From Oscillospiraceae bacterium (GTDB taxonomy: Bacteria > Bacillota > Clostridia > Oscillospirales > Acutalibacteraceae): a DNA stretch of 38,305 bases. A program made the position numbers and the translations under genes. The notes under the pieces were generated by a model. That model had not been told where the DNA came from. It ran no database searches and was given only the letters and a program-made list of their open reading frames with translations. Positions 17,340-38,179 of the stretch are shown one piece after another. The first letter of the stretch is position 1. Each line of letters opens with the position of its first letter. The DNA is taken from NCBI GenBank assembly GCA_015066625.1, contig SVOC01000020.1:1-38305 (forward strand), read 5' to 3'.

Positions 17340-17958
17340 CATAATCCGTAAATATAACACGACAGTTGCTTTCATTAAGCTCCGGCGCCTTGACAAAGGT
17401 CTGTGCATCTGCTTTTATGCCTTCCACACGGATTTTATATGTTACACTGCCGTTAAGCACATCGTCTTTTTTATCCTTATAGTAAATGTATATATCGGAT
17501 TCAATATCCTTGCCTGATATGTTTTTCAACGAAATTGAGCCGCCTGCAATCTTAATCTCAAATTTATCGCTGTTCATAACAGGCTGTTTTTTAAAAAGAA
17601 CCTTATCTTCCGTCTGCCACGCCGTATATACCTCATCGGGGTTGCTGCCCACGGATTGGTTGCACAGAAGCACCGCCTTTGTGCCTCTCAACAAAGCGGA
17701 AACATTGAAGGTCAGTGTACCTTCTTTTGTTTTCACGGTAAGCAGCGCATATTCAACATCGGTGTCGGATACATTTTCCGCCACAACGGCAAGCCTGCCG
17801 TAGTATTCATCAATTTCAATGATTTTAAGCCAGCCGTCAACAGTAACGCCCAGCTGCGCATTTTTGAAAGCAACCGTTGTTGATTCGGGACGGGAATCCT
17901 CTGAGTTATACTTCAGCACTGCAGCAACAATCAGCGAAACTGCAACCAGAACTGTCAG
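17323..17958 (-). CDS. Membrane-anchored protein of unknown function in the peptide operon
   Basis: The safe reading begins at GTG 17919 (198 residues, MLKYNSEDSRP), but the open frame extends upstream and adds a hydrophobic helix (LTVLVAVSLIVAAVLKY) that makes a good N-terminal membrane anchor. The only upstream codon with logic is CTG 17958, which overlaps the stop of the peptide gene as CTGA, like the usual ATGA coupling; it gives 211 residues. Alternatively, deletion of one A near 17965 would join this frame to an ATG (M-K-I-G-L-T...), so a frameshift or sequencing error is possible. The remainder is a beta-rich, probably extracytoplasmic domain of ~170 residues with no motif I recognise. 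Position between the precursor peptide and the kinase suggests a role in the same system. Confidence 0.65.
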   Translation of the reverse strand: MTVLVAVSLIVAAVLKYNSEDSRPESTTVAFKNAQLGVTVDGWLKIIEIDEYYGRLAVVAENVSDTDVEYALLTVKTKEGTLTFNVSALLRGTKAVLLCNQSVGSNPDEVYTAWQTEDKVLFKKQPVMNSDKFEIKIAGGSISLKNISGKDIESDIYIYYKDKKDDVLNGSVTYKIRVEGIKADAQTFVKAPELNESNCRVIFTDYDDKEV

Positions 17959-18092
17959 CCCGATTCTTCATCAATAACGGGGCATTCGTACTCTGCACTG
18001 TTTGTGCCGAGAAGGTAACATCCGGAGGATACATTTGCTGTTATAGCGAGGCTTTCAAAAGCGATTGCGGGTTTGATATATGACTTTTTCAA
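17955..18092 (-). CDS. Putative RiPP precursor peptide A (45 aa)
   Basis: TTG start at 18092, five bases after a perfect GGAGGT (18103-18098), and only 21 bases downstream of the giant GH2 gene's stop. The product starts MKKSYIKPAIAFESLAITAN and ends with VIDEESG; it has two cysteines (C25, C37) and no signal peptide. The Y-I-K-P-x-I motif and the position of the first Cys (20 residues after the Tyr, after SSG) match peptide B at 37946-38179, although the rest differs. It is followed at once by unknown-membrane, HprK-like, radical SAM/SPASM and PqqD-like genes, the normal setting for a modified peptide. The N-terminal half would be the leader and the part from about residue 22 the core; the cut site is not evident. 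Confidence 0.78.
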   Translation of the reverse strand: MKKSYIKPAIAFESLAITANVSSGCYLLGTNSAEYECPVIDEESG

Positions 18093-18113
18093 ATTTTACC
18101 TCCTTATACAGCA

Positions 18114-21100
18114 TTATAATGTAATTCCGAACAGTGCCAATACAAACTTGGCAAAATCAATAACTTTGTTACAGACCCAAACGAGAAAATCAAGGAACGT
18201 AATTTCTGAACCGTCATCGGGTTCTTCGTCGGTGTTGCCGGGCTGCTCATTGTCGGGCTCATCCTGCGGCGGGTCAGCTTCGGGGGGAGCTTCAACGGTT
18301 ACGGTAACGGTTACAGCCTTTGAATAATCTGTATATCCGTTTTCATAAGCACCTGCAACCGTATAGGTCTGAGCGCCGATTTTATCCGTAGCGATTTTCA
18401 CCGTCCACTCAACGGCATCTTCTCCCTCAACCTGAGAAGCCGTAAATTCAACATTCTTCGAATCTACGGGATTACCGTTTTCATCGGTAACAACAAGCGA
18501 GGACACATCTGCCTGAGTTCTGAGCTTTATTGTGATAACGCTGTTACCCTGTTCGTCGGTAACAACTTCGGGCTCCTGTGTCTGTTCAACATCAAGAGCT
18601 GCGGTTCTCATTTTCATAAGAGAATAGGCAGCTACCTGCGTATCGGTGGTTGAAGAAAGGGTAAGCACCTCATCCTCAACCGGTGTGGGAATACGGAAAT
18701 AACCTTTACCGCCGTTCTGCGAGAATGTCCATTTCATATTTGTAACAGAAAGAACACTGTCCGCTTCGCCTGTATTCTGTATAACAACAGTTCCCGTGGT
18801 GTAATAATTGTTACCGTCACTGCCTGCAACCTGTTTCCAGGTAAGCTTGGCATCATTGGGCAGTACGGAATTCAGAGAATAGAATGTGTCGGTTGCTGTT
18901 TCAATACTAACATCGGTTGTTTTGGATCCATATGAAACGGTAAGCACGGGTTTTCCGCAGGCAAGTTTTGCACCCAGCTGAACATCGGTAGGCACGGAAG
19001 TTGCCCAGATTTCAAACGCAACAGCCTGATCCTTTGCAAGATACAGTTCGTTGTTGGGACCTGCATCTCTGTAGGTTGCAATGTCGTTATCAAGAGCGGC
19101 AATACCGTCAATAAAGATAACACCCTGCGTATCGGTTTCTGACAGTGAATCTGCACCTATAAGCATATTCTTGATTTCAAGATAGCTGGGGTAAAGCTCA
19201 TCATCGGTTGCATATGCATTCTTTACATCTTTATCGCCGATATCATCGCCGATGCCTGCAGGTGAATATATCTTTATTGCATCAAGATATACTCTGTAAT
19301 AGCTTGTGCCGTCTGCGGCGGTGGATGAATGACGGAATGCACTTGTGAAGGTTGGAGTTATCACTACGCTGTAATTGCCGTAATCCAGGTCTGTTATCTT
19401 GATTACGGGAATCTGATAAAGCGTTTCTTTTGTGTCCGCATCGGCAACAACCCAGCCGTAAGCATAAGCATATGCGGGGTTATCCGTTTCTGTTTTAACC
19501 ACTTTGCCGTCTTCATCATAATAATGAGCAACATCGGTAATCGCACCGTTTTCATCATAGTATCTTTCGTCGGATGTGCAGGTGCCGTTTGATGTTCTGT
19601 ACATAGGTGTGAATGAATCATTAAGAGTGGGCTTGCCGTCTGCATCCGAATAAATTCTGCCGTAATTGTATCCGTAGAACGTGTCGACAACGGTTGACCT
19701 TACCTGTTCGCCTTTATCATTTTTGACAACAACACTGAATGCACCTGTGGTGGAATCCGTGATGCTTATAAGGTCAAAGCCCGTACCTGTAAAGGTGAAA
19801 TCGATTGTGGGCCATTCAGCACCCGTGCCGCCGCTGTATTTCTTATTCGGATTATTCTTTGTGCTTACATCAACATAGTGCGCAGAACCGCCGCTGTACT
19901 CTGCAAATGAAGAGTAATTTGTTTCGTAACCGTAGGGATTTGCCTCACTGTCGATAAGGTCGGCAGTCTGTTTGAGTGTGGTCAACTGTGTACCGTCGGT
20001 CTTCCAGATGCCGTACTGATTGGTGCCGTTATCATAATCTGAAGGTACTTTACCGTTTGTGTAGGTTACGGTGTCGAAAGTATCTTCGTAATAAATCGCC
20101 GACGCGGGAATGAATGTTGTCTTTTCTATCTGATAGTATATAACATCATCCGCATAAGTGGGGTCTCCCGAAATTTTTGCAACCACATAGAAGTTTTCCG
20201 AATCCTTCATATTCATTGATTCGAGGGTGTAAGACGTGTTACCCTTCTTATCAATTGTGCAGGTACCGTATTTCATCCCTTCAATGGTGTATTTAACACC
20301 TTCTTCAAAAGGAATAATAATTTCGGGTTTTTCGAAGGTGTAAGTCGGGCTGTATTCTTCATTCACGGCACAAATACCGAGATACTCAACCGTTGCACCG
20401 TTATCAACAGCAGCCTGCGAAATATTGTTGTTTTCGGTTATATCATATTCAACGGGCAAGCCGTAATCAAGGGTAAGATTCTGGTCAATGATTCTTACTT
20501 CCTCCGATGTTTCCGAAAGGTTGAACGAAATTTTACAGTTTGAGTCAGATGCGCCTCGTTCAAGATAGAAGAAGTTCAGGGTATGAACTTCGCCGTCGGA
20601 TATAACTTCGTGAAGCTTGTTGATTGAGGCGATTGTGTCTGCATTATATCCCGTGGAATCGGGATTTTCGATATAAGCGTTGTAAGAATATGTTGTTTCA
20701 TATTCATCGCCCTTAAGCACACCGTCCGTAACATCCATTGCATACTGATAATTGATTGTACAGGTTGTGAAGTTGATGGTTGCTGCACGGGCACCGTGAA
20801 GGCCGCCGTTATCAAGAACAAGAACACCGTCAATGTAAACATAAACGTCATCGTCGCCCGAGAAGCTGAATACAACATCTTCACCGTTAACGTGTTTACC
20901 TCCCTTGGGAATATAAAAATTGTGTTCAAATGTAAAGCCGTAGTGATAAACTGCGTTTTCACCTGTGTAGGTTGTTGTCCCCTGCTTGTAGTTAAAGGGG
21001 AAGAAGCCTGAACCGTTATTCGGACCCCATGCGCTCCAGTTTCCGACTTTGTTGAGTTCCATCTCCGCAGTGTGATCTGCATCGTTGAATGAAGCCTGAA

Positions 21101-24100
21101 CAAGATATTGGGTATCCTTACTGTCGAAATGATAGGTATTTACACCGTATTCGTCAGTGCTTATAAACATGGGGAACTCTGTATCCCAGTAATATTTTGC
21201 ATACTGACCTGACGTTTCCGTTGTAACATTACCGTTTGCATCAAGAGTTTCACGGGTAAACAAATCAGGGAAATGAACACTGATGTCCGTAAGATATTCA
21301 AGAGTTATTTCTTTGTATTTTGTGCCTGTATCGATACCGTAGGTATAGCGTTCAATATCATACATGGTATCGGGTCCGTCATTTGCATATGAAAGACCTT
21401 GCGTATATGCCGCATGGGAGGTTACAACTCCCTTATCAAGGGTTGCGCCTGCAAGACCCTGAACCGATGCACCGTCATGCACGGGCTCTGTACCCAACAG
21501 AGGGTCATCGGCACCGTGAGTATTATCTTTTGTCCACACGTTCCAGAGAGTAAGGGGGATTTTTGTGTCTGCATTGACATACTGGAAGTTAGAGGGTGCA
21601 ATAGAAACGGTTGAATCGTTGCGGGGCTTGCCCGTAAACTGCAGAGTATAAATTTTTGCATATAACTCAGCAACTTCTTCGAGCACCTCGTCGGCTCTGC
21701 TGCCAGCCCAACCCATACTTGTATCGTTATAACCGATAAGTTCCTTTATCTGACTTACAAGGTTTACATCTGCAAGAATGGCAGTTTTCATCTGTCTGAC
21801 AGCTATATCGTTCATCAAAAATCCGCCGTCGGAATAATCGGCTGTGCCGTTTGAGTTGTTGTAACCGTATTTAAACAGAGTGCCGTTGATTTTTTTGACG
21901 TCCAGTTCTAGAGAATTGATTGCTGCGCGGACAGCTGCTGTTGCAGCAGTCAGCTCCGCATCTGTTGCATCGGCTTTTTTGTAAACTGCAACACCGCTTT
22001 CAAGGGCTCTGAGCAATGCTTCATAGCTGACTCTCGTATAGGCGGAATAATCATACCCGATACCTTCATGAAGAATATCATAAAGAGCTTTCTTCTCAGA
22101 ATTGACGGTGCCGCCTGTGTTGCCGCCCTCGTCGTCTCCGCCGTCATCGCCACCTTCGGGAGGTGTAACAGAAGTCGGATATTCCGGTGAATAGAGCCAG
22201 ATTGTAGTGTTATAGGTCTTATCGGCTGTGCACAAGCCAAAATATTCCCACTCGCGGAAAAAAGTGATGCGCGTTCCGTTTATATAAGTGTAAATCTGAA
22301 CTGAACCGTTGTCGTTTGCTTCAACATAAAAAGCGTACGGCTGGGAGATAAGTCCCGGGCACCAACCGATTATGCCAAGATATTCGCGTGTATTCCTGTT
22401 CTGAATATAATATTTGCCGTCTCCCTGATGAGTAAACACATATATATTGTCAGAACTTGTATCAAAGCTGTTGTAATAATAAGGGGAACCTGTAACTGCC
22501 CATTCATCTACTGTGATAGCAGTATCTATGCGCATATCACCCCAGTCCGCAACCATCTCGTCGGTCATTACGCAATCCTTAACGTTAAGCACGTATTCGC
22601 CGTCAGGAATACATCTCTCGGAAGCGGTTGTATCCGCAAGATGAATCACAAACTTATCGGGGTCAACTGCGGGAGCAGGTGCGACGGGCTCCTCGGGCTT
22701 GAGTGTATAAAGCCACATCTCATAGTTTATTTTCCAGCTTACACTGTCAACTTCCCCTTTGGTTGCAACATAGTAATGGGTAGCATTGGTGTAATGGCAG
22801 ATGTAATAATCTGAAGAATGAATAAAAATTGAGCCGCTGTCGGTTACATCAACATACAAGCTTTCGGGAGTGGTACTATACATAATGGAGTAATCACCCT
22901 GATCGGGATGACCGCCCAAAGTGATATATTCGCCTGTGCTCTTATTTTTAATGTGGTATTTATTATTGCCCTGATGTTCAAATGTAAAAACATTCAGTTT
23001 ATCTGTGCCGAAGCTTTCATAAGTGTAAGAGCCTGACGAAGAATTGGTCTTGGACCGGATATCGGTATCTGCTGCAAGGGTATAACCCCAGAACGACTCG
23101 CCCGACATTACGGTATCTTGATTAAAAACTACATAATCACCGTCAGGAATACAGCCTTCCGAAACAGTTGAATCGGAAAGATAAATCTCATATATATCTG
23201 TATTTGTTGAGCCGCCCGTGCTGCCCGAATCACCCGAGCCGCCTTCTTCTGTTTCAGGGGGTTCAAGCTCGTTGATGTGATGCTTCACCATTTCGTATTC
23301 ATCGTAAAGAGTAGGTTCGTATTCATCGCCGTTTTGAACGACAACCTCTTCAAACTCATCGGTAAGTTCAATGTCTGTTTCGGTTACGGATGTGACCGTA
23401 ATACCCTGAGTTGAAAAACTTGATGAACCGTCGGATGCAACAGCGGTAAGGTTGATTGTGCCTTCTTCTTCTGTTGTTCTGAGAATCACAAGTGCTTTAC
23501 CGTTGAACATCTGTATTTCAGCCACCGAATCGGAAATAAGCACTGAAGGCTGCTGGAATTTATCCGTTGTTGCCGCATTACCGTTATCTACACCGACAAT
23601 TTTTGCATATCTTGCAGATGAGTCGTCAACTTTTACGTTGAGAGTGCCGTTATAGTCATTCATGAAATTGCCGTCGGCATCTCTTGCCTCAAATTCAACA
23701 TAGACATAGTCCGCACCGTCTGCAACAAAGGTGTTTTTATTCTGCCAGGTATTCACGGCAATCTGCGATGCAGTGCCCGTTACGGATTTTGTTGAGCCTG
23801 CAGTTTCTGTGATTTCATTGTTATTTTCGTCATAGGCTTTAACGGAAAGTGTACCTTCCGCATATTTCACCCTGAACTGAGGATAGAAATCCGCTCCGCT
23901 GCCTGTGTAGAAGTTGCCTACGGAACAGTTGGCATAATCCTTTATACTTTCTGTCCATGTTCTGTATGTATAACCCGCAGGTGTTGTAACAACATTTGAA
24001 GTGGCAGTTGCAATAACCTTGCCGTTAAGAAGCAGTTCTGTTTTCTTTGCGTTGCTGTAAACCGCAACATTCACATATCCGTTATCGAGAAAAAGATTTT

Positions 24101-26111
24101 CCTTGTTCCACGAACCCGGAACGAGGTGAAGCGTGGTGCTCTTATCATTCCACAGGCTTCTGTAAAGGTAGTAGGAGTCTTTTGCAAAGCCTGCCGTATC
24201 AACAATACCGAAATATGATGAGTTGGGAGCTAAGCCCGGACTTGCATAAACCATATCGTCCCAGGGGGTAGGCTCGCCGATATAGTCAAAGCCTGTCCAT
24301 ACAAATTCACCGGAGAACCAGTCATTTGTGGCAACCGCATACCAGGCTTCTGCCGCTTCGTTACCCCATGATACCGCTTCGGTGTCATAGGATGTGCACT
24401 GATAATTATCGGTGGTTGACATTGTGCTGTAAATACCACGGCTGTTGGTTGCGGAAGCTGCTTCCGTTGCAACAAAAGGCTTGCCGTATCTTGAATCTGT
24501 GGGGTCATTCATAACGCTGATCCAGGCATCAGGACTGTAGTTACCGCCGATAACATCCATATATCCGTCAATCATAGTGTTGGTTGCAGGTTCGTAATAC
24601 GGTCTGTTATTGCCCTGAAGCACAACTCTTGATGGGTCAAGTCTGTCTGTTATTTCAACAATGGACTTGGCTATTTCTTCATAATTCGCTGTTGATTCAC
24701 CGCTTGTTATGTTAGAAAGCTCATTGCCAATATCCCACGCAATGATACAGGGGTCATGTCTGTCGCGCAATACCGTCTGCTCAACAACATACTCAAACCA
24801 TTTCTGACCGTGGGCACCGACAGCGGTATTTGATGAAGATATATCCTCATAGAAATATTTACTGAAATCGTTGGTGTTACCGTTTTTGGAAGCATCCCAA
24901 CCGTCAAAGAATTCTTCCATAACAAGCATACCGAGCTCGTTACAGATATCAATCAGAACTCTTGATGCGCTGTTATGCGAGGTACGGATTGCATTACAGC
25001 CCATCTCTTTAAGAATAACAACCTGACGGTAAATTGCTTCGTATTCCTGTACAGAACCAAGTGCTCCCTGGTCGTGATGAAGACAAACACCTTTAAGTTT
25101 CATATATTCGCCGTTCAAGCTGAACCCTTTGTCTTCATCCCAGTCAATGTAACGGTAGCCGAATACTGTATGATATTCATCAATAAGCTCACCGGATTCA
25201 TTCTTTACGACAGTCTTCAACTTGTAAAGGCAGGGATTATCCGGACTCCACAGCACGGGAGAATTGACTTTGGGTTCAAGAATAACCGACTGTTCTGCTT
25301 TGGCAGGCACTGTAATAAGCGGTGATACCGCGGTTTCACTCACAGGATCATTTTTATCGTCAAGGATAGTAGTTTCAACAGTAACTTTTCGGGTAATTGC
25401 CGCGCTGTTACTCACTGTTACATTTGATCTTGCAGTACCGTCACCCTCCGCAATACCCGGAGTTATTACCTGAGGTCCGTAAAGTGAAATATGAACAGGG
25501 TCTGCAATGGTAAGCGTAACATCCCTGTTGATACCCGAACCCGAATACCAACGGCTTGAAGGAAGGTCATTCACAACCTTGACAGCAATGAGGTTGAGCG
25601 CTGTGTTTGAGCAGATAAGATAGTCTGATATTTCAAAAGAAAAACTGTTGTAACCGTAATGGTTTTCTCCCACATACTGACCGTTCACATATACATAGGT
25701 GTGCTGGTAAGCCCCGTCAAAATTAAGAATTATACGGTCGCCTGTATAGTAATCGTAAAGATTGAACCATTTTCTGTACCAACCTGTTCCGCCGGGCAGA
25801 TTTCCGCTTTCAGCTTCTGTTCCCGATGCGGTAAATTCCTGACTTATGCTGAAATCGTGTGGCAAATCAACCTTTTCCCACCCCGAATCGTCAAAACCTT
25901 TCAGGTAGGCTGCTGAATCTTCACAGAATGCAAAGCTCCAACCTCTGTTGAAATCAAGTTCAACTCGGGCGTCATTATAACTCTGAACGTGATCCGTTAC
26001 AGCCGACGCCTTGATTGATTGCACAAGCGAATACCAACCTTCATTGAATATGCCTGTTGCAAATATTAACACACAGAGTAAAAAAGCCAGAACCTTCTTT
26101 GCTGCCTTCAT
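18114..26111 (-). CDS. Giant secreted GH2 beta-galactosidase-like multidomain protein
   Basis: 2665 residues from ATG 26111 (GGGAGG 8 bases upstream). After the signal peptide (MKAAKKVLAFLLCVLIF) come a GH2 jelly-roll domain (~35-200), an Ig-like domain, and a TIM barrel with the acid/base Glu464 in WDIGNELSN and the probable nucleophile Glu550 in KPFVATEAAS. Next are a DUF4982-like domain (~665-720), further beta domains, two tandem ~140-residue modules (~985-1135 and ~1165-1307; each opens C-I-P-D-G-[DE]-Y-V), a FIVAR helical domain (~1335-1405), and a fibro-slime/PA14-like domain (GDDDVYVYIDGVLVLDNGG near 1755). A region from ~2005 to 2490 is shared with the giant protein at 30215-37930. 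The end is an acidic Pro-rich linker and a hydrophobic tail (last 30 residues) without LPxTG. It should cleave beta-galactosides on glycans outside the cell. First gene of operon A. Confidence 0.93.
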   Translation of the reverse strand: MKAAKKVLAFLLCVLIFATGIFNEGWYSLVQSIKASAVTDHVQSYNDARVELDFNRGWSFAFCEDSAAYLKGFDDSGWEKVDLPHDFSISQEFTASGTEAESGNLPGGTGWYRKWFNLYDYYTGDRIILNFDGAYQHTYVYVNGQYVGENHYGYNSFSFEISDYLICSNTALNLIAVKVVNDLPSSRWYSGSGINRDVTLTIADPVHISLYGPQVITPGIAEGDGTARSNVTVSNSAAITRKVTVETTILDDKNDPVSETAVSPLITVPAKAEQSVILEPKVNSPVLWSPDNPCLYKLKTVVKNESGELIDEYHTVFGYRYIDWDEDKGFSLNGEYMKLKGVCLHHDQGALGSVQEYEAIYRQVVILKEMGCNAIRTSHNSASRVLIDICNELGMLVMEEFFDGWDASKNGNTNDFSKYFYEDISSSNTAVGAHGQKWFEYVVEQTVLRDRHDPCIIAWDIGNELSNITSGESTANYEEIAKSIVEITDRLDPSRVVLQGNNRPYYEPATNTMIDGYMDVIGGNYSPDAWISVMNDPTDSRYGKPFVATEAASATNSRGIYSTMSTTDNYQCTSYDTEAVSWGNEAAEAWYAVATNDWFSGEFVWTGFDYIGEPTPWDDMVYASPGLAPNSSYFGIVDTAGFAKDSYYLYRSLWNDKSTTLHLVPGSWNKENLFLDNGYVNVAVYSNAKKTELLLNGKVIATATSNVVTTPAGYTYRTWTESIKDYANCSVGNFYTGSGADFYPQFRVKYAEGTLSVKAYDENNNEITETAGSTKSVTGTASQIAVNTWQNKNTFVADGADYVYVEFEARDADGNFMNDYNGTLNVKVDDSSARYAKIVGVDNGNAATTDKFQQPSVLISDSVAEIQMFNGKALVILRTTEEEGTINLTAVASDGSSSFSTQGITVTSVTETDIELTDEFEEVVVQNGDEYEPTLYDEYEMVKHHINELEPPETEEGGSGDSGSTGGSTNTDIYEIYLSDSTVSEGCIPDGDYVVFNQDTVMSGESFWGYTLAADTDIRSKTNSSSGSYTYESFGTDKLNVFTFEHQGNNKYHIKNKSTGEYITLGGHPDQGDYSIMYSTTPESLYVDVTDSGSIFIHSSDYYICHYTNATHYYVATKGEVDSVSWKINYEMWLYTLKPEEPVAPAPAVDPDKFVIHLADTTASERCIPDGEYVLNVKDCVMTDEMVADWGDMRIDTAITVDEWAVTGSPYYYNSFDTSSDNIYVFTHQGDGKYYIQNRNTREYLGIIGWCPGLISQPYAFYVEANDNGSVQIYTYINGTRITFFREWEYFGLCTADKTYNTTIWLYSPEYPTSVTPPEGGDDGGDDEGGNTGGTVNSEKKALYDILHEGIGYDYSAYTRVSYEALLRALESGVAVYKKADATDAELTAATAAVRAAINSLELDVKKINGTLFKYGYNNSNGTADYSDGGFLMNDIAVRQMKTAILADVNLVSQIKELIGYNDTSMGWAGSRADEVLEEVAELYAKIYTLQFTGKPRNDSTVSIAPSNFQYVNADTKIPLTLWNVWTKDNTHGADDPLLGTEPVHDGASVQGLAGATLDKGVVTSHAAYTQGLSYANDGPDTMYDIERYTYGIDTGTKYKEITLEYLTDISVHFPDLFTRETLDANGNVTTETSGQYAKYYWDTEFPMFISTDEYGVNTYHFDSKDTQYLVQASFNDADHTAEMELNKVGNWSAWGPNNGSGFFPFNYKQGTTTYTGENAVYHYGFTFEHNFYIPKGGKHVNGEDVVFSFSGDDDVYVYIDGVLVLDNGGLHGARAATINFTTCTINYQYAMDVTDGVLKGDEYETTYSYNAYIENPDSTGYNADTIASINKLHEVISDGEVHTLNFFYLERGASDSNCKISFNLSETSEEVRIIDQNLTLDYGLPVEYDITENNNISQAAVDNGATVEYLGICAVNEEYSPTYTFEKPEIIIPFEEGVKYTIEGMKYGTCTIDKKGNTSYTLESMNMKDSENFYVVAKISGDPTYADDVIYYQIEKTTFIPASAIYYEDTFDTVTYTNGKVPSDYDNGTNQYGIWKTDGTQLTTLKQTADLIDSEANPYGYETNYSSFAEYSGGSAHYVDVSTKNNPNKKYSGGTGAEWPTIDFTFTGTGFDLISITDSTTGAFSVVVKNDKGEQVRSTVVDTFYGYNYGRIYSDADGKPTLNDSFTPMYRTSNGTCTSDERYYDENGAITDVAHYYDEDGKVVKTETDNPAYAYAYGWVVADADTKETLYQIPVIKITDLDYGNYSVVITPTFTSAFRHSSTAADGTSYYRVYLDAIKIYSPAGIGDDIGDKDVKNAYATDDELYPSYLEIKNMLIGADSLSETDTQGVIFIDGIAALDNDIATYRDAGPNNELYLAKDQAVAFEIWATSVPTDVQLGAKLACGKPVLTVSYGSKTTDVSIETATDTFYSLNSVLPNDAKLTWKQVAGSDGNNYYTTGTVVIQNTGEADSVLSVTNMKWTFSQNGGKGYFRIPTPVEDEVLTLSSTTDTQVAAYSLMKMRTAALDVEQTQEPEVVTDEQGNSVITIKLRTQADVSSLVVTDENGNPVDSKNVEFTASQVEGEDAVEWTVKIATDKIGAQTYTVAGAYENGYTDYSKAVTVTVTVEAPPEADPPQDEPDNEQPGNTDEEPDDGSEITFLDFLVWVCNKVIDFAKFVLALFGITL

Positions 26112-26189
26112 AAACAAACCTCCCTGAAGTGCTTTGTGGCAATTAAATAAATATAGTAAGACACATAACTTGAACATAAAAATCACTAT

Positions 26190-26218
26190 ATTATATCAAA
26201 CTATAATATTAAAATCAA
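26190..26218 (-). promoter_or_regulatory. Sigma-A-type promoter of operon A
   Basis: On the minus strand, -35 TTGATT (26218-26213), 17 bases, -10 TATAAT (26195-26190), then a ~72-base leader to ATG 26111. The next seven genes follow on the same strand, with no terminator seen until 13210. Confidence 0.8.
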
Positions 26219-26229
26219 GTAGCAGATGT

Positions 26230-26260: not shown

Positions 26261-26266
26261 AACCGT

Positions 26267-28006: not shown

Positions 28007-28054
28007 AGAATTCCCCCTTGTCATTTGTTTGCACATAGAACCCCATTATGATGA

Positions 28055-28084: not shown

Positions 28085-28116
28085 GATATTTTGTATAAAA
28101 ATTTTATAATATCATA

Positions 28117-28145: not shown

Positions 28146-28168
28146 TTCCGTAATTACGATGGAGCAAT

Positions 28169-28210
28169 ATGGGTGATTGCCTTTCGGGCTTCACCGATGT
28201 CTGGCTATGA
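28169..28210 (+). CDS. 13-codon mini-ORF coupled to the kinase gene
   Basis: ATG 28169 follows GGAG (28161-28164) and encodes MGDCLSGFTDVWL; its TGA overlaps the kinase ATG as ATGA. The kinase gene itself has no ribosome binding site, so ribosomes ending on this mini-ORF could restart there. It may be a translational coupling leader; a function for the peptide itself is not suggested. The alternative is that the kinase starts at the in-frame TTG 28177. Confidence 0.45.
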   Translation: MGDCLSGFTDVWL

Positions 28211-30186: not shown

Positions 30187-30214
30187 ATAACGCAAAAATC
30201 ATGGAGGTAATTTT

Positions 30215-33200
30215 ATGAAAAAATTTGTCAAACCAATAATCACATTGTTGTTGGTAGCTGCATTGCTCGTTCCCACCATCGGAATGATTTTCAGCTCAGC
30301 GGCAACAAGCTTCACGGTTGAACTTGCATTCGAAAACCTTTTCGTTCTCGATCATTGGGTAATCAACCAGAATTCAATGCGTGTAACAAATGATTCTATA
30401 GCAAGCGGAGCCGTTGCTGCGTACGATGTCGGTTCTGTAACCAATATGGACTTGCAGAACGGCAGCTTCAGGCTTACCAACAAAACTTCTGAAAATGTTT
30501 ACACCGTAGCTTCAATGGGTTCGGGTGAACACACCAAAGACAACTTCGATTATTACAGAATGCCTGTTGAAGAGGGCGTTACCTACACTCTCAGCTACAA
30601 CATCCAAGGTAATGTGCCGGGCTTCTTTCCTTTCGTTTTCTTTTACGATGAATCAAACGAATACAAATCATTTGTCAACGGAGCGGCTACCGGCACGGGT
30701 GACAACAGCTTCACCTTCACCGTTCCCGAAGACATGGCATATATTCAGATCCGACTTACCCTTGCCGGCAACACCGCCAAGAACGCTTATGCCGATATCA
30801 AAAACATAGCAATTTATAAAGTTGACATAGTAGCTGACGAAACCAACCTTTTTGATTTCGCTGCATGGTCAGCAAAAGTCGGCACTCAAACTCACGGATA
30901 TTACAACGCCGGTTCTTTCACTACAAATGCGGATGAGAAGAGTGTGACTCTTACCACCAATTCAGCCAGCCACTTTCTGTTTACCAATTTCTCATATTAT
31001 CCGACTATGGATCAGCCGGGCAATAATGGCGATTATTATACAATAGATGTCGAGCCTGAAACAAGTTACACATTCTCTTACACCCTCGACAACGGTAACC
31101 TTCATGCTTCTACTCTTTACAGACCTCACATCGCTTATTACGATTCAACGGGCAAAATCATCACTTATCTGCCCTACGAGTCTCCCAAATTCGGAGATAA
31201 CAGTTTCACATTCACCACACCTGCAAACACAGATTTCATTCAGGTCATATACGCTGTTGCCTGTGATGTGCAGGCAGGTCTGACCTGTACCGTTAGGAAT
31301 GTTGAGCTTCACAACATACCTTATCCCGTTGAACACAAGGTAGACCCTGTCCGTAAGACTTATACTTACACAGCAGGCAGCAACGCTACATACGGCACAC
31401 TTCCCACTCCCCCTGCCGCAACATACCCCGAAAATTACATTTTTGCCGGCTGGTATACAGGCAAAGACGGCACAGGCACCCGCATTGCTTCCGATACTCC
31501 CATCCAGCCCCAGAGCATGACTGTGTATCCCAAGTTTGAACCTGCGGTTGACAGCCTTACGGTTGCTACAATGCCCGCAAAAACAGAATACACCGTGGGC
31601 GAAAAGCTGAACACTGCCGGTCTTGTTCTCAAAGCAACCATTAACGGCAAGGGCGATGCTGACGGAGACGGAGCAACAGACCCCGACACAACCTTCAATA
31701 TCACTTCGGGTTACTACATCACCCCCGAATATGCAAGCAGCACAGCAGGAACACAGTCAATCACCGTTCACTACGGCGGTAAAACTGCCACATTCAACGT
31801 TAATGTCAGCGCAGGTAAAGATAAGAATATTGTTGTCAACGGCGCTACTTATCCCGTCACGGTAGCAAACAACGAATATACTCTTAATTACCAGGCACCC
31901 TCTCCTTTCAACCGCTATGAAATGACATATTTCTCCGATTCATATGTCAAGGGCGAAATTGTCATGGATGGTATTACCGAAGTTTTCTTCCTTGAACCCT
32001 CCGATAACGGATCCTTCGCTTCTTACATCGACAGCTTCCTCAGAGGCGTTAATCATTACAATGTTGATTCAATCAAATTCACCTGCCTTGATAAGGAATT
32101 CGGCAATTTTGAATTGCTTTCAGTAACAACAATTGCCGCTACCATTCCATCCAACTCAACGCAGTATTACGAGAATGCTGAAACCGGCTACAAGGTTGGT
32201 ATTGACCTCAGCTTCGGCGGCGTTGTTTCTGAAATTTATGACCTTAATAACATCGTTGAGTCCCGTGTTTACAATATAGGCGGCCAACAAGTTACAAAGG
32301 TTGACTACGCAGAAAGATTGAATGCTGATTACGGCACAAACTACATTTCGCGAAAAGCCGAAAATGTTAACCTTATCAACAAATTTGACCGAGGCAGATA
32401 CCTCCAGCAGTCATATTACGGCACATCGCAGAAGCCCTACGAAATGGGCGACTATAACGGAAATCCCTGGCCCTACAACCCCGTTCAGGGCGGTAACCTT
32501 GTTATTAATAATGCAGACGGCACTACCAAGGGTAACGAGGCAAGTAAGGTTATCGACTACAGAATCACCGATGACCAGATTTACATTAAAACCCGTCCTC
32601 TTGACTGGGGTAAAAACTCAGTTGACTACCCCGACAGCTATGTAACCGATTCTTACATGGAAGCATGGTATGTTTTCGAAGACGGAATGATTAAAACATA
32701 TTGCCGCTTTGTTGACTATTCGGGTTATCCCGCACACACCCGTGACCAGGAGCTTCCCGCAGTTTACATCATTGAGCCTCTTAACCACTTTGTTTACAAC
32801 AATGTTGCACAAGGCAGTGAATGGACAACAACAAACTATAAGAAAATAGAAGAACCTGATTTCTGGGGCGTTCTTCCCGAATACAATGCTTTGCTTGAAA
32901 CACCGGTTGATCCTACTGTTGACTGTTACGAAAACTGGGCTGCTTTCGCAGCCAGCGACGATGCGAACAGCTTCGGTGTCGGCGTTTATTCTGCAGGCGT
33001 AACCGATTTCCATTACGGCTGTTTCTTCCCCAAATACCAGGAAGAGGCTGCAAAGAACGGTCAGCTTGTACCCACCGCCAACAGACACGCTGTTACTCCA
33101 GACCCTGCTACAGAAAACCCCACATCATATATTTCACCCGTTGGCCAGATGACATTTGAAAGCTACAAGCCGATTGAATACTCATATTATCTTACAACAG

Positions 33201-36200
33201 GTAAAGTAGGCGAGATTTATAACGACTTCAAAACAGTTGCTAACAAAGATAACCAGGCTGAACAGGATAAGAGCAAGATTGCAGTTCCCGAAACTGTTTA
33301 CATGACCCCCGCAAACGGTGCTTCAAAAATCGGCCAGTATTATGTAAACAACATAATGGATGAAAGCCTCAACAATAAGGTTGTAACCGAAGCCAAGCGC
33401 GATGCAGGAATGTATCTCGGCCTTTCAATCAAAGACGCCAAAGAATTCAGCGTTAAAATCACAAACGTTACAGACCCCTCCAACGATATCTTCCTCTGCG
33501 ATTCAAGCGGCTCAGAAATCAGCGAAGGCTCAAAAATACGCTTTGACTCCTCGGGAACATACATAAACGACCATAGCTACGGCATGCGTTTTTCAGGTGC
33601 AGGTCTTCAGCCGGGCGAAAAAGCAACCGCCAAGTGGGAGATAACCGTCTATAAAAATGACGGCACGTCGGAAGTCTTCACGGCATATACCGTTATGTAT
33701 GCACCCGGACGCACCGTGGGTGCCGTTGCGGAAGCCCGTCAGGTTGGCAATTCTCAAAACGAAATTTCTTCATGGATAACAGGTGCCAACGGAGTTGACC
33801 ACACCAAGCAGGCTCCTTTAGGCTCTTTGCACGCAGACTATCGTAATTTTGGTTACTTTAAAGCTGATCCTTTACATGGAGCTATGCCGTCAGGCGGTTC
33901 AGGCGAAACTGCAAATGACTACATTAATGTAAGCAGCAACACAAACGACTATTATGTCATGCAGGCTGCAACCAACGGCCACGACGGTTCAAGAGCACAG
34001 AGCTACCTGGGCTTGCTGACAGTTGATAAATCCCGTTACACAAACACAAATCAGATTCCCAATCTTAAAATAGGTTACGATGCTCTGAGAATTGATGACG
34101 GTTATCCGAACAACTCACTTCAGAGTTACAACACTTATTACACTTTAGGTACAAGTGAATCCTTCACAGCTACAGATCTTAATGCTGTACCCAGCGGTTG
34201 GACTTCAAACAGTTCTCACGGTCAGCTTTATAAAGAGCTCGGTGAAGATATGAGTAAACTCCCCTACAGAGAAACAGTTATTCCTTCATATAATGTATCG
34301 GACATTGACGGTAAATATATCCATGCAATAGCTCGCGGTGAAGCCTACCAGATTGCTGTTGCAAGAAGATATTCAACCGCAGGTACATCAGTTCTCTGCT
34401 CCGTAACCGATAAGAGCGGTCTTCGTGATGCGATTCTCAACGGCTATACTATAGTTGATGATGATGCCGATTTCAACAGAGAGCTCCAGGAAGCAGCAAC
34501 CGTTCTCGGCGATCCCTCCGCAACTCAGTCGCAAATCGATGAGGCAAAGAAACAGCTTAACGATGCCATGGAAGAACTGGTTGATAAGTTCTACGCATTG
34601 AAATATGATAACCTTTTCAGTGCTTATGAGATGTCCCAGTTCCCCGCAAGCATGAAAGTTGTTGGCGACAGAGGAACAGCCACCTACAAAGACGGCAAAA
34701 TCACCATTGTTAACGACACAATCACGGGCGGTGAAGCATACACCGAATACGGTTCAGCAGACCATTTCTATAAGGTTAAGCTCAACCCCAACACAGAGTA
34801 TGTGTTTGAATATGATGTTACAACAGACGGAAAATCCCAGGCATTCATGTTCTTCTATAATGCAAGCGGCGGTGCCGGAGATGTTCCGACGAACATGAGC
34901 ATTCAGACAAACGGCGGAAACTGGTCATCAAAAACCGAGTCCAATTCCTGGTTCGGTAATTACGGTAACGCCGGCACATACCACTATGTCATAAAGTTCA
35001 CAACCGGTCTCAATACCACTCAGGCAAGCTTCCGATTCGGTAACACAACCAACGATCCCTGCGAATCAACCTTCTCCAACATCAAGCTGATTGATGCAGC
35101 TCGCTATTATGCTGATGTTGAATACGCAAAGACCGAAGATGTTTACAAAGAATACAGCTCTTACGGCGTTCTTCCCGTTCTCACCAGAACAGGCTACACC
35201 TTCGGCGGATGGAAAGATGCTGACGGAAAAGCAGTAACAGGTGCAGACATTGCAACAAATCACAAATCAATCTTCTCGGTATGGACCGAATACACCTACA
35301 CAATTATTTACGACGCAAACGGCGGTACAGGTTCAATCGCAAACAAACCAGTCAAGTATTCAGAAACCGTAGCACTTGATTCAGGCAGCAGCATATCAAA
35401 AACAGGCTACAGGCTTCTCGGCTGGTCAACAGACAAGAACGCAGCGACCGCACAGTATGCACTCGGTCAGAGCGTAAGCAAGCTTACCACTGTGAATAAC
35501 GGCAACGTTACCTTCTATGCGGTATGGCAGCTTTCAGAAGTCAATGTCACATTCGATAACCTTATCGATTTCAGAGCTTGGAACAAGAGTGCAGGCAACG
35601 GCACCGTTTCCAACGTAACAGACACAGGCTTCACAATCACTTGTAACACAGGTGCAGGCGAAGCTACTTCAACTTCACCCATCTTCCCCGTAACGGCAGG
35701 CAAGCAATATAAGATTGAGGCTGATGTTACAGGCAACGCTTGGGACATTTACATCTTCTTCTACGATTCAAAAACATCAAGCGGCACAGGTATTGATTTC
35801 ACTGACAGCGGAAACAGATACGCAGCAAACGGCGGTGGCAACGCCACACAGATATTCACTGCTCCCGCAGGTGCAACAAGAGCTGTAATCCGTGTTGACT
35901 CAAACAACGGCGGTAATGTTACAACATTCAACAACATCCGCGTTTATGAGCATGACGGCATTGATATCAATGTTAAGCCCGCTAACAAGATTGTAAGAAA
36001 CAGCGATACTTTCGGCGTGCTTCCCACTCCCACAAAGGCAGGTCACACCTTCCTCGGTTGGTATGACGGTGACAGACCTGTAACCGCAGATTCAGCAATT
36101 AACAGCACCTCAACTGTTTACCTCACTTCAAAGTGGGTTATCAACGATACTGCTCTTGCAAAAGACACAGTTGTTGTTGACTTTGCAACACCCATTGATA

Positions 36201-37930
36201 TCACACCTCTTGCAAACGATACGGTTTACAATTTGGCAGAAGGCAAAAAGGAATTCCTCGGCTTCAGCTCCGACGGCACAAACTACGGCGCAACAACCAT
36301 TAACGGTACTTACGGTACATTTGCCGTAAAGGGCGAAACCGTTACCTACACTCCCTCAAAAGCGGTTGACGATGCCGAAAAGATTTACTATCACGCTTTA
36401 GTTACTGCTGACGGTAGAGAAACAGAAATCAAGAATGAAATCACCGTTGCCCCCGCATCAAACGTTCTCTATGAAGAAAATCTGTTTACGCAGACACTCA
36501 CCGGACTTGATTGGACCAGAGGCACAGCAACCACTGTAAACCAGAGTTCTTCAACAGAAAATGATGTTTACGGCTACGACAGCAACATCAACGGCTACAA
36601 CAAGCTTTCAAACTACTCAAACGGCTCAGCTTACACGGTAACCGTTAACGACACAAACAAGCGTTCAAAGAATATGACATTTGACTTCGCAGGCGAAGGC
36701 TTTGACCTTATCAGCGCTTGCGGTCCCGACACCGGTGTTCTTGTTGTTACTCTCAGAGACAACAAAACAAGCAAGGTAGTCAAGTCCTATGTTGTTGACA
36801 CTTACTACGCTGACAGCAGATACGCAGCCTCAACAAACAACACTCTTTATCAGGTTCCCGTTATCAGCGAAGCAAAGCTTGCTAACGGTTACAGCAACTA
36901 CACGCTTCAGATTATCGCTTCCTACCTGCCCTCAATGTCAGGCGCTTGCAACAGTCAGGTAAGCACTCAGGCAGTTGACGGTATGACCGTCAGCACGGCA
37001 TCAGGCGCAGGCAACGCAGAGCTTCGCGAAGCACTTGCAGAAATCGGTCTTGATTATGTTCTCGATGCTGAAGAAGTTGAAGTTGTATGGTTCGATGACG
37101 ATTCCGTACTCAACGGCGGCAACGGTGCAAACACCGTTGAAGAAGGCGAAGTAAGAACTCAGGCAGTAACAAGCCTTTTCAACGTTATTGACTCCGTAAG
37201 AGTTTATAAGCCCTTCGAGAACGGTGATGAATACTACATTCCTTCCGAAAAGAATGCTCAGTACTACAATGTTATGGATAACCTTGTAAACGGTAAAGAA
37301 GACGGCATAATCCCCGGTCTGACTTCATTCTTTGCTTATGTTTCAGGTAATGACAATGCAGAAATCACCGTTGAAAACTACAATTCAGTCGGTCCCAAGG
37401 ATGAGCTTTACCTTGCAAAAAGTAACACGGCTGTTTCATTCACCATTAAAGATTTTGACAAAACTACAACAAGCGTTATGATCAGCCTGAGAGCTGCATC
37501 GGGCACTCCCACTGTTAAGATCGGTGAGAATCAGTTCAAAGTCAATAGCAACACCGAAATGTATTATGACATTACCGATTACATCACGGACCGTACCGTT
37601 GCAATTCAGAATATGACTTCAGATGCTCTTCTTTCAGTCGGTTCAATCAAGGTTACAAGCACTGTTGATACATTCTTGTTTGCTACAACAGAACTTGACC
37701 TTGCTACCGCAAGCTTTATGATGTCGGCTCCCGCCACAACCGTCGAGCCCAATACTCCCAATACCGAACCCGAGGCTCCCGCAGACCCCGTTGAACCCGA
37801 AAATCCCGTGAATCCCGAAGAGCCTTCAGACGATAACTCATCGGAATGCTGGCTCGTCAGATTCATCAACTGGGTAATCGAAATGGTCACAAAGGTATTC
37901 AACGTAATCAAAAGTGTTCTCGGATTTTAA
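30215..37930 (+). CDS. Giant secreted multidomain adhesin-like protein
   Basis: 2571 residues from ATG 30215 (GGAGGT six bases upstream). The signal peptide MKKFVKPIITLLLVAALLVP is odd in that its first residues match the Y-I-K-P-x-I-T-L start of peptide B. N-terminal beta domains (~35-390) look like carbohydrate-binding modules in tandem. InlB/Flg_new repeats lie near 395-440, 1640-1680, 1690-1755 and 1925-1965 (GY/YxFxGW cores), a Big_3-type Ig-like domain near 445-535, and a helical FIVAR-like stretch near 1425-1460. No glycosidase active site was recognised in the large middle part. From ~2083 to 2500 it shares a region with the giant GH2 protein (EGFDLIS, VVDTYY, LYQVPVI, KDELYLAKS). It ends in a Pro/Glu linker and a hydrophobic tail (FINWVIEMVTKVFNVIKSVLGF). 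A surface adhesin or scaffold role is likely. Confidence 0.9.
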   Translation: MKKFVKPIITLLLVAALLVPTIGMIFSSAATSFTVELAFENLFVLDHWVINQNSMRVTNDSIASGAVAAYDVGSVTNMDLQNGSFRLTNKTSENVYTVASMGSGEHTKDNFDYYRMPVEEGVTYTLSYNIQGNVPGFFPFVFFYDESNEYKSFVNGAATGTGDNSFTFTVPEDMAYIQIRLTLAGNTAKNAYADIKNIAIYKVDIVADETNLFDFAAWSAKVGTQTHGYYNAGSFTTNADEKSVTLTTNSASHFLFTNFSYYPTMDQPGNNGDYYTIDVEPETSYTFSYTLDNGNLHASTLYRPHIAYYDSTGKIITYLPYESPKFGDNSFTFTTPANTDFIQVIYAVACDVQAGLTCTVRNVELHNIPYPVEHKVDPVRKTYTYTAGSNATYGTLPTPPAATYPENYIFAGWYTGKDGTGTRIASDTPIQPQSMTVYPKFEPAVDSLTVATMPAKTEYTVGEKLNTAGLVLKATINGKGDADGDGATDPDTTFNITSGYYITPEYASSTAGTQSITVHYGGKTATFNVNVSAGKDKNIVVNGATYPVTVANNEYTLNYQAPSPFNRYEMTYFSDSYVKGEIVMDGITEVFFLEPSDNGSFASYIDSFLRGVNHYNVDSIKFTCLDKEFGNFELLSVTTIAATIPSNSTQYYENAETGYKVGIDLSFGGVVSEIYDLNNIVESRVYNIGGQQVTKVDYAERLNADYGTNYISRKAENVNLINKFDRGRYLQQSYYGTSQKPYEMGDYNGNPWPYNPVQGGNLVINNADGTTKGNEASKVIDYRITDDQIYIKTRPLDWGKNSVDYPDSYVTDSYMEAWYVFEDGMIKTYCRFVDYSGYPAHTRDQELPAVYIIEPLNHFVYNNVAQGSEWTTTNYKKIEEPDFWGVLPEYNALLETPVDPTVDCYENWAAFAASDDANSFGVGVYSAGVTDFHYGCFFPKYQEEAAKNGQLVPTANRHAVTPDPATENPTSYISPVGQMTFESYKPIEYSYYLTTGKVGEIYNDFKTVANKDNQAEQDKSKIAVPETVYMTPANGASKIGQYYVNNIMDESLNNKVVTEAKRDAGMYLGLSIKDAKEFSVKITNVTDPSNDIFLCDSSGSEISEGSKIRFDSSGTYINDHSYGMRFSGAGLQPGEKATAKWEITVYKNDGTSEVFTAYTVMYAPGRTVGAVAEARQVGNSQNEISSWITGANGVDHTKQAPLGSLHADYRNFGYFKADPLHGAMPSGGSGETANDYINVSSNTNDYYVMQAATNGHDGSRAQSYLGLLTVDKSRYTNTNQIPNLKIGYDALRIDDGYPNNSLQSYNTYYTLGTSESFTATDLNAVPSGWTSNSSHGQLYKELGEDMSKLPYRETVIPSYNVSDIDGKYIHAIARGEAYQIAVARRYSTAGTSVLCSVTDKSGLRDAILNGYTIVDDDADFNRELQEAATVLGDPSATQSQIDEAKKQLNDAMEELVDKFYALKYDNLFSAYEMSQFPASMKVVGDRGTATYKDGKITIVNDTITGGEAYTEYGSADHFYKVKLNPNTEYVFEYDVTTDGKSQAFMFFYNASGGAGDVPTNMSIQTNGGNWSSKTESNSWFGNYGNAGTYHYVIKFTTGLNTTQASFRFGNTTNDPCESTFSNIKLIDAARYYADVEYAKTEDVYKEYSSYGVLPVLTRTGYTFGGWKDADGKAVTGADIATNHKSIFSVWTEYTYTIIYDANGGTGSIANKPVKYSETVALDSGSSISKTGYRLLGWSTDKNAATAQYALGQSVSKLTTVNNGNVTFYAVWQLSEVNVTFDNLIDFRAWNKSAGNGTVSNVTDTGFTITCNTGAGEATSTSPIFPVTAGKQYKIEADVTGNAWDIYIFFYDSKTSSGTGIDFTDSGNRYAANGGGNATQIFTAPAGATRAVIRVDSNNGGNVTTFNNIRVYEHDGIDINVKPANKIVRNSDTFGVLPTPTKAGHTFLGWYDGDRPVTADSAINSTSTVYLTSKWVINDTALAKDTVVVDFATPIDITPLANDTVYNLAEGKKEFLGFSSDGTNYGATTINGTYGTFAVKGETVTYTPSKAVDDAEKIYYHALVTADGRETEIKNEITVAPASNVLYEENLFTQTLTGLDWTRGTATTVNQSSSTENDVYGYDSNINGYNKLSNYSNGSAYTVTVNDTNKRSKNMTFDFAGEGFDLISACGPDTGVLVVTLRDNKTSKVVKSYVVDTYYADSRYAASTNNTLYQVPVISEAKLANGYSNYTLQIIASYLPSMSGACNSQVSTQAVDGMTVSTASGAGNAELREALAEIGLDYVLDAEEVEVVWFDDDSVLNGGNGANTVEEGEVRTQAVTSLFNVIDSVRVYKPFENGDEYYIPSEKNAQYYNVMDNLVNGKEDGIIPGLTSFFAYVSGNDNAEITVENYNSVGPKDELYLAKSNTAVSFTIKDFDKTTTSVMISLRAASGTPTVKIGENQFKVNSNTEMYYDITDYITDRTVAIQNMTSDALLSVGSIKVTSTVDTFLFATTELDLATASFMMSAPATTVEPNTPNTEPEAPADPVEPENPVNPEEPSDDNSSECWLVRFINWVIEMVTKVFNVIKSVLGF

Positions 37931-37945
37931 GAAAGGATTAGGATA

Positions 37946-38179
37946 ATGAGCAAATATATAAAACCAACAATTACGCTTGTGGGCACAGCCACTGCAAGCG
38001 GTGCCACATCAAGCTGTTCTTCAAGCACTGTTGACTCCAAGGAACTTGTAGATATCCTCTTATCAATGGGCTTTGACCTGAATGCGGTTTTCAATACGGC
38101 TGAAGGCTGCACTCAGCCTGCTGACATGTTTGAACAATACTGCAAATTCTCATCGGCAATTCAGGTCTTCACCTCATAA
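37946..38179 (+). CDS. Putative RiPP precursor peptide B (77 aa)
   Basis: ATG 37946, 15 bases after the giant gene stops, with AAGGATTAGGA upstream. The product begins MSKYIKPTITLVGTATASGA, then a Ser-rich SSCSSS, an amphipathic helix (KELVDILLSMGFDLNAVF), and ends in VFTS. Cysteines are at 24, 55 and 66. There is no signal peptide. The Y-I-K-P-x-I motif and first Cys at 20 residues after the Tyr match peptide A. It is the last gene of an operon with an HprK-like kinase and a radical SAM/SPASM enzyme. A leader of about 20 residues and a Cys/Ser-containing core are likely; three Cys suggest thioether or similar links. A strong terminator follows. Confidence 0.85.
   Translation: MSKYIKPTITLVGTATASGATSSCSSSTVDSKELVDILLSMGFDLNAVFNTAEGCTQPADMFEQYCKFSSAIQVFTS

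What the first reader, a model, noticed from the sequence alone, without database searches (positions are those of the whole stretch)
17955..38179. Two operons repeat the same unusual plan: giant exported protein, adjacent Y-I-K-P peptide, HprK-like kinase and radical SAM/SPASM enzyme
Seen: in operon A (minus) the order is giant - peptide - unknown - kinase - radical SAM - PqqD; in operon B (plus) it is kinase - radical SAM - giant - peptide. The peptide lies 15-21 bases after the giant gene in both, although the rest of the order differs, so the giant-peptide pair seems to be the conserved unit. Known: PqqD, SPASM enzymes and HprK-like kinases tailor ribosomal peptides. Inference: a RiPP-type system in which a modified peptide works with, on, or for a very large surface protein. 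I do not recognise it as a named class.
Basis: partly seen in the sequence, partly recalled or inferred. Interest (0 to 1): 0.92.

Follow-up and report, generated by a model that had tools for sequence, protein, structure and literature searches.

The report
Modified peptide paired with giant surface proteins
In many gut Clostridia a small peptide, apparently altered by a radical SAM enzyme and a kinase, is encoded right behind a giant surface protein, which suggests that the two work together on the cell surface in a way not yet described.

Summary
Both operons have the stated order; the peptide starts 21 nt (A) and 15 nt (B) after the giant gene. One correction: operon A's peptide is cut short. 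Against a relative, 197 nt are missing: half the peptide, a hairpin and the next gene's start.

The plan recurs across Clostridia. Of 57 distinct peptides of this family, 48 can be judged, and 44 directly follow a giant sharing one C-terminal module. That module is in 39 of 48 kinase loci with the peptide and 0 of 33 without. In 150 family genomes, all 8 with the peptide have the module. The giants' front halves differ. The module models as two carbohydrate-binding-like jelly rolls. The amphipathic tail is not diagnostic.

The peptides keep a YxxP leader and three or four cysteines; 54 of 57 end in serine. This fits a PqqD-guided RiPP pathway: a SPASM enzyme acts on the cysteine region and a PEPCK/HprK-fold kinase on the terminal serine, as PadeK does in lasso peptides. 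Product and role are unproven; I infer a surface partner of the giant's module. It met no named RiPP class tested here.

The parts
18114..26186 (-). Giant exported protein A, 2690 aa, beta-galactosidase-type GH2 at the N-terminal side; the likely true start is the ATG at 26111
   Evidence: Glyco_hydro_2 domains; Fibro_Slime domain just below cut-off
18702..20153 (-). C-terminal module of giant A (shared by the giants); modelled as two jelly rolls
18117..18206 (-). amphipathic C-terminal tail of giant A (last 30 residues), after an acidic/Pro-rich linker
17955..18092 (-). Peptide A, truncated precursor (45 aa, TTG start, YIKP leader); second half lost
17957..17963 (-). junction (approximate) of the 197-nt absence relative to L033
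   Evidence: alignment; one search shows the sequence
17323..17919 (-). 'Unknown' gene A without its N-terminus (membrane-anchored exported protein in relatives, by eye)
16482..17408 (-). PEPCK/HprK-fold kinase A (start judged from relatives: near 17342)
15436..16506 (-). radical SAM/SPASM enzyme A
15173..15439 (-). PqqD-type leader-binding protein (RRE) A
26267..28036 (-). ABC transporter without C39 peptidase, divergent from operon B; possible exporter (inferred)
28177..29061 (+). PEPCK/HprK-fold kinase B
29062..30186 (+). radical SAM/SPASM enzyme B
30215..37930 (+). Giant exported protein B, 2571 aa (Big_3, Listeria-Bacteroides repeats)
36422..37684 (+). C-terminal module of giant B
37838..37927 (+). 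amphipathic C-terminal tail of giant B (last 30 residues)
37946..38179 (+). Peptide B, intact 77-aa precursor, YIKP leader, three Cys, C-terminal Ser
38187..38219 (+). hairpin followed by T-run directly after peptide B (terminator-like)

Best explanation
Each operon is a RiPP-type cassette that makes a small modified partner for one giant surface protein. Shown by sequence: a precursor of mostly 76-86 aa with a YxxP leader, three (type B) or four (type A) conserved Cys and a C-terminal Ser is encoded directly after, and sometimes overlapping, the gene of a giant exported protein with a conserved C-terminal module; a kinase, a SPASM radical SAM enzyme and usually a PqqD protein lie in the same cassette. 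Inferred: PqqD binds the YxxP leader and presents the precursor; the radical SAM enzyme crosslinks or otherwise alters the Cys-containing core; the kinase phosphorylates the C-terminal Ser; an ABC transporter exports the product; outside the cell the peptide binds the CBM-like C-terminal module of the giant, helping to hold or organise it in the cell's polysaccharide layer. The hairpin after the peptide gene would give much giant and peptide and little enzyme.
Against: No product, modification or binding has been observed. The first of the two Asp of the lasso-kinase motif is Gly here (NGD instead of DD). Some genomes have module giants with no peptide beside them (G014, G027, G006), or module and kinase on different contigs (G123, G150, G155); G033 has a module but no kinase match. 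Of 71 family genomes with a kinase match, 58 lack the module. L146, L163 and L174 hold close radical SAM relatives with no peptide recognised nearby. Type A is not one clade on the radical SAM tree (10 changes). The module model is of medium confidence (pLDDT 65). In L043, L158 and L205 no module giant lies directly upstream of the peptide. Capsule genes (CpsB in 9 of 48 peptide loci, 4 of 33 others) and the ABC transporter (7 of 48, 10 of 33) are not specific to peptide loci. The window's own operon A has lost half its peptide while the giant and enzymes stay open.
Confidence: 0.5

Rival explanations
1. The peptide is an ordinary RiPP (antimicrobial or signal) that merely shares the operon of a surface protein because both serve niche competition.
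For: Related cassettes with the same kinase and radical SAM families occur without any giant, near an S24-like peptidase, an ABC transporter and a nucleotidyltransferase. The ABC transporter family is shared.
Against: The pair stays adjacent when the rest of the order changes; the core is conserved across genera rather than variable; I noticed no immunity gene, though none was searched for.
Confidence: 0.22
2. The enzymes act on the giant itself (its module or tail), and the peptide is a chaperone, guide or competing substrate.
For: Constant order and closeness of the two genes; some B giants carry a Cys-Trp in the tail (W_B, L035, L039).
Against: The peptide carries the YxxP motif known from leaders read by PqqD-type proteins (PMC10368454, passages); the giants have signal peptides (by eye) and would leave the cell; tails vary or are absent.
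Confidence: 0.1
3. The peptide is processed to a small cofactor (as with PQQ or mycofactocin) used by the giant enzyme.
For: PqqD plus SPASM enzyme is the logic of such pathways (recalled); PqqE and mycofactocin maturase models match under cut-off.
Against: No peptidase or dehydrogenase among the operon proteins scanned; the whole length of the peptide, including its last residue, is conserved; glycoside hydrolases need no such cofactor (recalled).
Confidence: 0.06
4. The phosphorylated C-terminal Ser is further joined to sugars (as PsmN does in pseudomycoidin), so that the peptide links surface polysaccharide to the giant.
For: NTP_transf_5 genes occur in 18 of 21 A/B genomes of the genus against 11 of 24 others (my sorting) and lie in polysaccharide loci in the three looked at; a LytR-CpsA-Psr protein and a subtilase adjoin it in G000; PsmN adds hexoses to the phospho-Ser (PMC9266682, passages).
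Against: NTP_transf_5 was found within the flanks of only 4 of 48 peptide loci against 8 of 33 others; no direct evidence.
Confidence: 0.12

Closest known systems
Phosphorylated lasso peptides (paeninodin PadeK, pseudomycoidin PsmK/PsmN)
   Same: HprK-like kinase, PqqD-type leader binder, YxxP leader, C-terminal Ser, ABC transporter nearby in some loci; in related cassettes also the NTP_transf_5 gene
   Different: No lasso cyclase or lasso leader peptidase among the window proteins scanned; a SPASM radical SAM enzyme instead; precursor gene directly behind that of a giant surface protein
SynChlorMet cassette (NCBIfam TIGR04248-TIGR04251)
   Same: HprK-like protein, PqqD-like protein and SPASM enzymes together
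   Different: All scores seen are far under cut-off (kinases 23.4 and 18.8 of 125; PqqD 14.3 of 100; ScmE 62.6 and 87.9 of 400); one radical SAM enzyme, not two; no giant partner is part of it (recalled)
Sactipeptides and ranthipeptides (SPASM thioether RiPPs)
   Same: Cys-containing core with a SPASM enzyme
   Different: No match over cut-off to the named maturases shown (StsB 74 of 625; PapB 57 and 59 of 340); the added kinase and the giant; thioethers not tested
Cohesin-dockerin or sortase/PEP-CTERM surface attachment (recalled)
   Same: A constant C-terminal module on otherwise different surface proteins, with a partner encoded nearby
   Different: Partner is a small, apparently modified peptide; no sortase or exosortase among the 16 window proteins scanned

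Membership tests
Radical SAM RiPP cassette (general) | small precursor with a leader motif next to a SPASM radical SAM gene | tested here: met
   YxxP leader (one exception seen, L220); cassette conserved
Radical SAM RiPP cassette (general) | leader-binding PqqD/RRE protein | tested here: met
   PqqD 53.1 bits over cut-off 23.4 (operon A); operon B has none in the window, one on contig C17 (58 bits); found in 37 of 48 peptide loci
Radical SAM RiPP cassette (general) | CX3CX2C and SPASM cysteines | tested here: met
   C34, C38, C41 and C254, C272, C307, C310, C316, C319, C338 invariant in 14 of 14
Radical SAM RiPP cassette (general) | modified peptide product | not testable with these tools
   needs mass spectrometry
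Phosphorylated lasso peptide | lasso cyclase (asparagine synthetase-like) | tested here: not met
   no such domain among the 16 window proteins scanned
Phosphorylated lasso peptide | transglutaminase-like leader peptidase | tested here: not met
   none among the 16 window proteins scanned
Phosphorylated lasso peptide | C-terminal Ser as kinase site | tested here: met
   54 of 57 distinct peptides end in Ser (site conserved; phosphorylation itself untested)
Phosphorylated lasso peptide | kinase His-Lys-Asp-Asp motif | tested here: inconclusive
   His154, Lys175, Asp194 invariant in 14; the first Asp is Gly193
SynChlorMet cassette | members over their NCBIfam cut-offs; two radical SAM enzymes | tested here: not met
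HPr-rel-A system | PqqD_rel_X TIGR04353 over cut-off 35 | tested here: not met
   16.5 bits for the operon A PqqD
Sactipeptide/ranthipeptide | Cys thioether to an alpha, beta or gamma carbon | not testable with these tools
   chemistry needed; named maturases shown were not matched over cut-off
PEPCK/HprK superfamily (kinase) | fold | tested here: met

The most novel reading that the evidence does not exclude
A general surface-assembly system of gut Clostridia: a ribosomal peptide, crosslinked by a radical SAM enzyme and phosphorylated (perhaps glycosylated) at its C-terminal Ser, serves as the dedicated adaptor that fixes giant, often glycan-active proteins, through a constant pair of CBM-like domains, into the cell's polysaccharide coat; one peptide may serve several giants in a genome. 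A RiPP would then be a structural part of the cell surface rather than a secreted product.
Probability: 0.27. Interest if true: 0.92.

Novelty: new variant of a known kind. Interest (0 to 1): 0.76.

Why it matters
RiPPs are mostly thought of as antibiotics, signals or cofactors. Here a RiPP-type cassette is tied, over many genera, to giant surface proteins, several of which carry glycoside hydrolase domains. If the peptide is a surface partner, it opens a new use for RiPPs and a new way to display enzymes on Clostridia of the gut, and it gives a clear test: a kinase acting on one conserved terminal serine, and one defined domain pair as the binding partner.

Tried and rejected
Tail as the paired element: rejected as a defining trait, since giants in L162, L187, L192, L193 and L202 lack it by eye and a subtilase without a neighbouring peptide has one.

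Recent duplication of the two operons: rejected. The radical SAM proteins are 43% identical and fall in different clades.

Both peptides as intact genes: rejected for A. Only two peptides are found in the whole genome with model A4, B intact and A cut. The 45 codons of A that remain differ from L033 by 13 synonymous and 0 other codon changes, so the loss looks recent; an assembly error cannot be excluded without reads.

A 24,959-aa open frame reported in G151: an artefact; 72,000 of the 100,000 bases fetched read N.

Known families for peptide and 'unknown' protein: no NCBIfam match for 5 peptides (P0015 at E 0.01, four relatives at E 1); no Pfam match for P0015, P0009 or three full-length relatives of the latter; two sub-cut-off NCBIfam matches for one relative of P0009.

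Fold search of the module by Foldseek gave only low TM-scores; the second look by VIA-align gave CBM-type matches per domain. Papers: searches returned nothing; one returned one paper, of which one passage, on HPr kinases in lasso clusters, was seen; two gave the lasso papers; one listed 10 of 146 general papers, none opened.

Fisher tests ignore kinship among genomes and rest on my own sorting; they are not used in the argument.

Rows dropped: before, 13 loci were left out by hand as other peptide types or chance matches (L055, L056, L059, L060, L064, L066, L145, L183, L184, L199, L208, L210, L230). With those present, 62 of 68 complete peptide rows end in Ser. De-duplication (by the last 55 residues) kept L039 and L156, which are one locus (so 57, not 58), and dropped the in-cassette copy of L167, which does follow a module ORF. 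L035 was not flagged there because a too-early start was taken; by hand its gap is 19 nt (its ORF positions). In one search, 8 of 51 stretches gave no labelled kinase; L217 was fetched but not read.

Full report
What is in the window. The window is one whole contig (G000:C5) of a 2.37-Mb genome in 32 contigs. Operon A runs on the minus strand: giant GH2-type protein, peptide, 'unknown', kinase, radical SAM, PqqD. Operon B runs on the plus strand: kinase, radical SAM, giant, peptide, then a hairpin with a T-run. An ABC transporter without a C39 domain lies divergently before operon B.

A correction. In the close relative L033 (radical SAM 86% identical) the same peptide is 79 aa and is followed by a hairpin and a full 'unknown' gene with an N-terminal membrane segment (by eye). 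The window lacks 197 nt there: the second half of the peptide, the hairpin and the start of the next gene are gone. The remaining 45 codons differ by 13 synonymous and no other changes. Operon A's peptide is thus probably dead, or cut by an assembly error, in this genome; operon B's is intact. No other copy was found in the genome.

Recurrence. A kinase alignment finds matches in 29 of 45 genomes of the genus, the own genome included. Fifty-one stretches around most of these matches were fetched and read; 8 of the 51 gave no labelled kinase. The rest fall into type A (giant-peptide-unknown-kinase-radical SAM-PqqD), type B (kinase-radical SAM-giant-peptide) and distant relatives, of which type C has another peptide beside the kinase and radical SAM genes and no giant. 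Of the proteins beside type C genes, Pfam names two as NTP_transf_5 and one, under its cut-off, as S24-like peptidase. A scan of one genome for each of 84,980 species, through the single pattern KSTQA[AN]LW, gave 111 relatives, the best 80 kept. Most are MAGs labelled Clostridia, Clostridiales or a family of these, many from ruminant guts; three (L184, L186, L209) are labelled Bacteroidaceae or Bacteroides and are not of type A or B. The one named strain seen with type A is Pseudoflavonifractor phocaeensis An569 (L193; Oscillospiraceae). In these 80 plus the window, 48 have a peptide of the A/B family and 33 do not; the giant module is found in 39 of 48 and 0 of 33. Six loci were put with the 33 by hand because their matches looked like other peptides. 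At least 5 of the 33 (L132, L134, L147, L149, L185) are type A cassettes whose upstream part lies off the contig; L146, L163 and L174 are close relatives with no peptide recognised.

The pair. One search collected 58 peptide rows, 57 distinct loci (L039 and L156 are one). Of these 57, 44 directly follow a module giant (43 by script plus L035 by hand; module scores 26 to 520 bits), 9 lie within 410 nt of the end of the sequence held and cannot be judged, and 4 do not: L043 (a short tail-bearing ORF precedes), L158 and L205 (module giant elsewhere in the locus) and a second, inverted copy in L167, whose in-cassette copy does follow a module ORF. Gaps run from -46 to 90 nt, most from -4 to 29. 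In a sample of 150 genomes of the family (the own genome and others of its genus, already used, among them), the peptide is found in 8, all among the 14 with the module; 13 of those 14 have the kinase. The peptide model used there is built from type A, so type B peptides are missed (for example in G119). Conversely 58 of the 71 genomes with a kinase match have no module; these are nearly all weaker kinase matches. Genus level: 18 of 19 module genomes have an A/B-type kinase, and 18 of 21 such kinase genomes have the module, by my sorting. The 8 genomes with only distant kinases among those looked at (G001, G003, G004, G008-G011, G013) have no module. G119, another genus, carries both an A and a B cassette like the window. 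Against strict pairing, several genomes hold extra module giants without an adjacent peptide, and in G123, G150 and G155 module and kinase lie on different contigs.

The peptide. Twenty-three type A precursors keep Tyr5, Pro8, Cys25, Cys37, Cys66, Tyr67, Pro70 and the last Ser79 without exception, with Cys55 nearly so. Type B precursors share the YxxP start, three Cys and the C-terminal [FY]xS. One family member, in L220, has Ala in place of the leader Pro. Of 57 distinct peptides, 54 end in Ser; the three others are L161 (Ser then Asn), the window's cut A and an apparently broken frame in L228. Background: 42 of 719 ORFs end in Ser. Before 13 loci of other types were set aside, 62 of 68 complete rows ended in Ser: four type C precursors do not (L055, L056, L059, L064), two do (L060, L066). 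A hairpin follows the stop: z under -3 (against 60 plain shuffles) in 13 of 13 type B and 29 of 40 type A stretches tested, and 0 of 3 of unclear order. In type A it sits inside the operon, between the pair and the enzymes, as an attenuator would.

The enzymes. The radical SAM proteins have the CX3CX2C motif and seven further Cys of the SPASM region invariant in 14 sequences. The kinase has almost no Pfam signal, but its model (pLDDT 87) has the PEPCK/HprK fold: PEPCK chains lead, HprK chains come from rank 25 on in Foldseek. His, Lys and one Asp of the lasso-kinase His-Lys-Asp-Asp motif are invariant; the first Asp is Gly. From passages of PMC9266682: PadeK phosphorylates the C-terminal Ser of its precursor, and PsmN adds hexoses to it. 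From passages of PMC10368454, one of them in the abstract: a PqqD-type B1 protein aids kinase and peptidase, and a YxxPxL leader motif matters; BsfK, a distant kinase, acts elsewhere (Ser3), so the site is not fixed for the whole superfamily. The 'unknown' gene follows the peptide in 25 of 40 type A rows and 0 of 15 type B rows.

Where it sits. Some type B cassettes stand at the head of capsule or exopolysaccharide loci (L036 by Pfam; G017 and G020 by eye). This is not specific: CpsB-like genes lie in 9 of 48 peptide loci and 4 of 33 others. In G000 a PqqD, a tail-bearing subtilase, a LytR-CpsA-Psr protein and an NTP_transf_5 gene lie together on contig C17. The subtilase is a candidate leader peptidase (inference).

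Mechanism and standing. Shown: the anatomy, the pairing, conserved residues, and folds by model. Inferred: modification of the peptide, site of phosphorylation, export, and binding to the giant's module. I rate the joint reading at 0.5 and the structural-adaptor reading at 0.27.

Novelty. The parts are of known kinds; scores are far under cut-off for the named NCBIfam models shown, which were the best 25 of 74 for each radical SAM protein. The coupling of a RiPP cassette to giant surface proteins was not found in the paper searches made, which cover open-licence papers only. SynChlorMet features are recalled apart from the NCBIfam scores; a search for its name found no paper.

Noticed in passing
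L212:6677-8260 and 6179-6466 (G000:C17): A secreted subtilase with the same kind of amphipathic tail stands beside a second PqqD gene, a LytR-CpsA-Psr protein and an NTP_transf_5 gene in the polysaccharide locus; it may be the missing leader peptidase.
   Followed up: partly
L055, L056, L059, L064 (type C cassettes): A related kinase/radical SAM/PqqD/ABC cassette with other precursors (YIVP or YVVP leader); an S24-like peptidase and NTP_transf_5 lie near in those looked at, and no giant was seen.
   Followed up: partly
L112, L113, L114, L115 (G014) and L116-L118 (G027): Several module giants per genome with very similar tails (TLQALL...), no peptide directly beside them, and one peptide cassette elsewhere.
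   Followed up: partly
L228:12242-12473 (G099): Another type A peptide whose reading frame seems broken, near an open kinase and radical SAM gene.
   Followed up: no
L167:6427 and 10299: Two copies of the peptide gene with the same protein sequence on opposite strands within 4 kb.
   Followed up: no
window 354-5369: A third very large protein (1671 aa) with a signal-like start in the window; its end looks like dockerin-type repeats (by eye).
   Followed up: no
window 11228-13174: A GH98-type protein with a signal-like start, near operon A.
   Followed up: no
window 6396-9926: A 1176-aa protein with a glycoamylase-like C-terminus (PF10091) near a SpoVAD gene.
   Followed up: no
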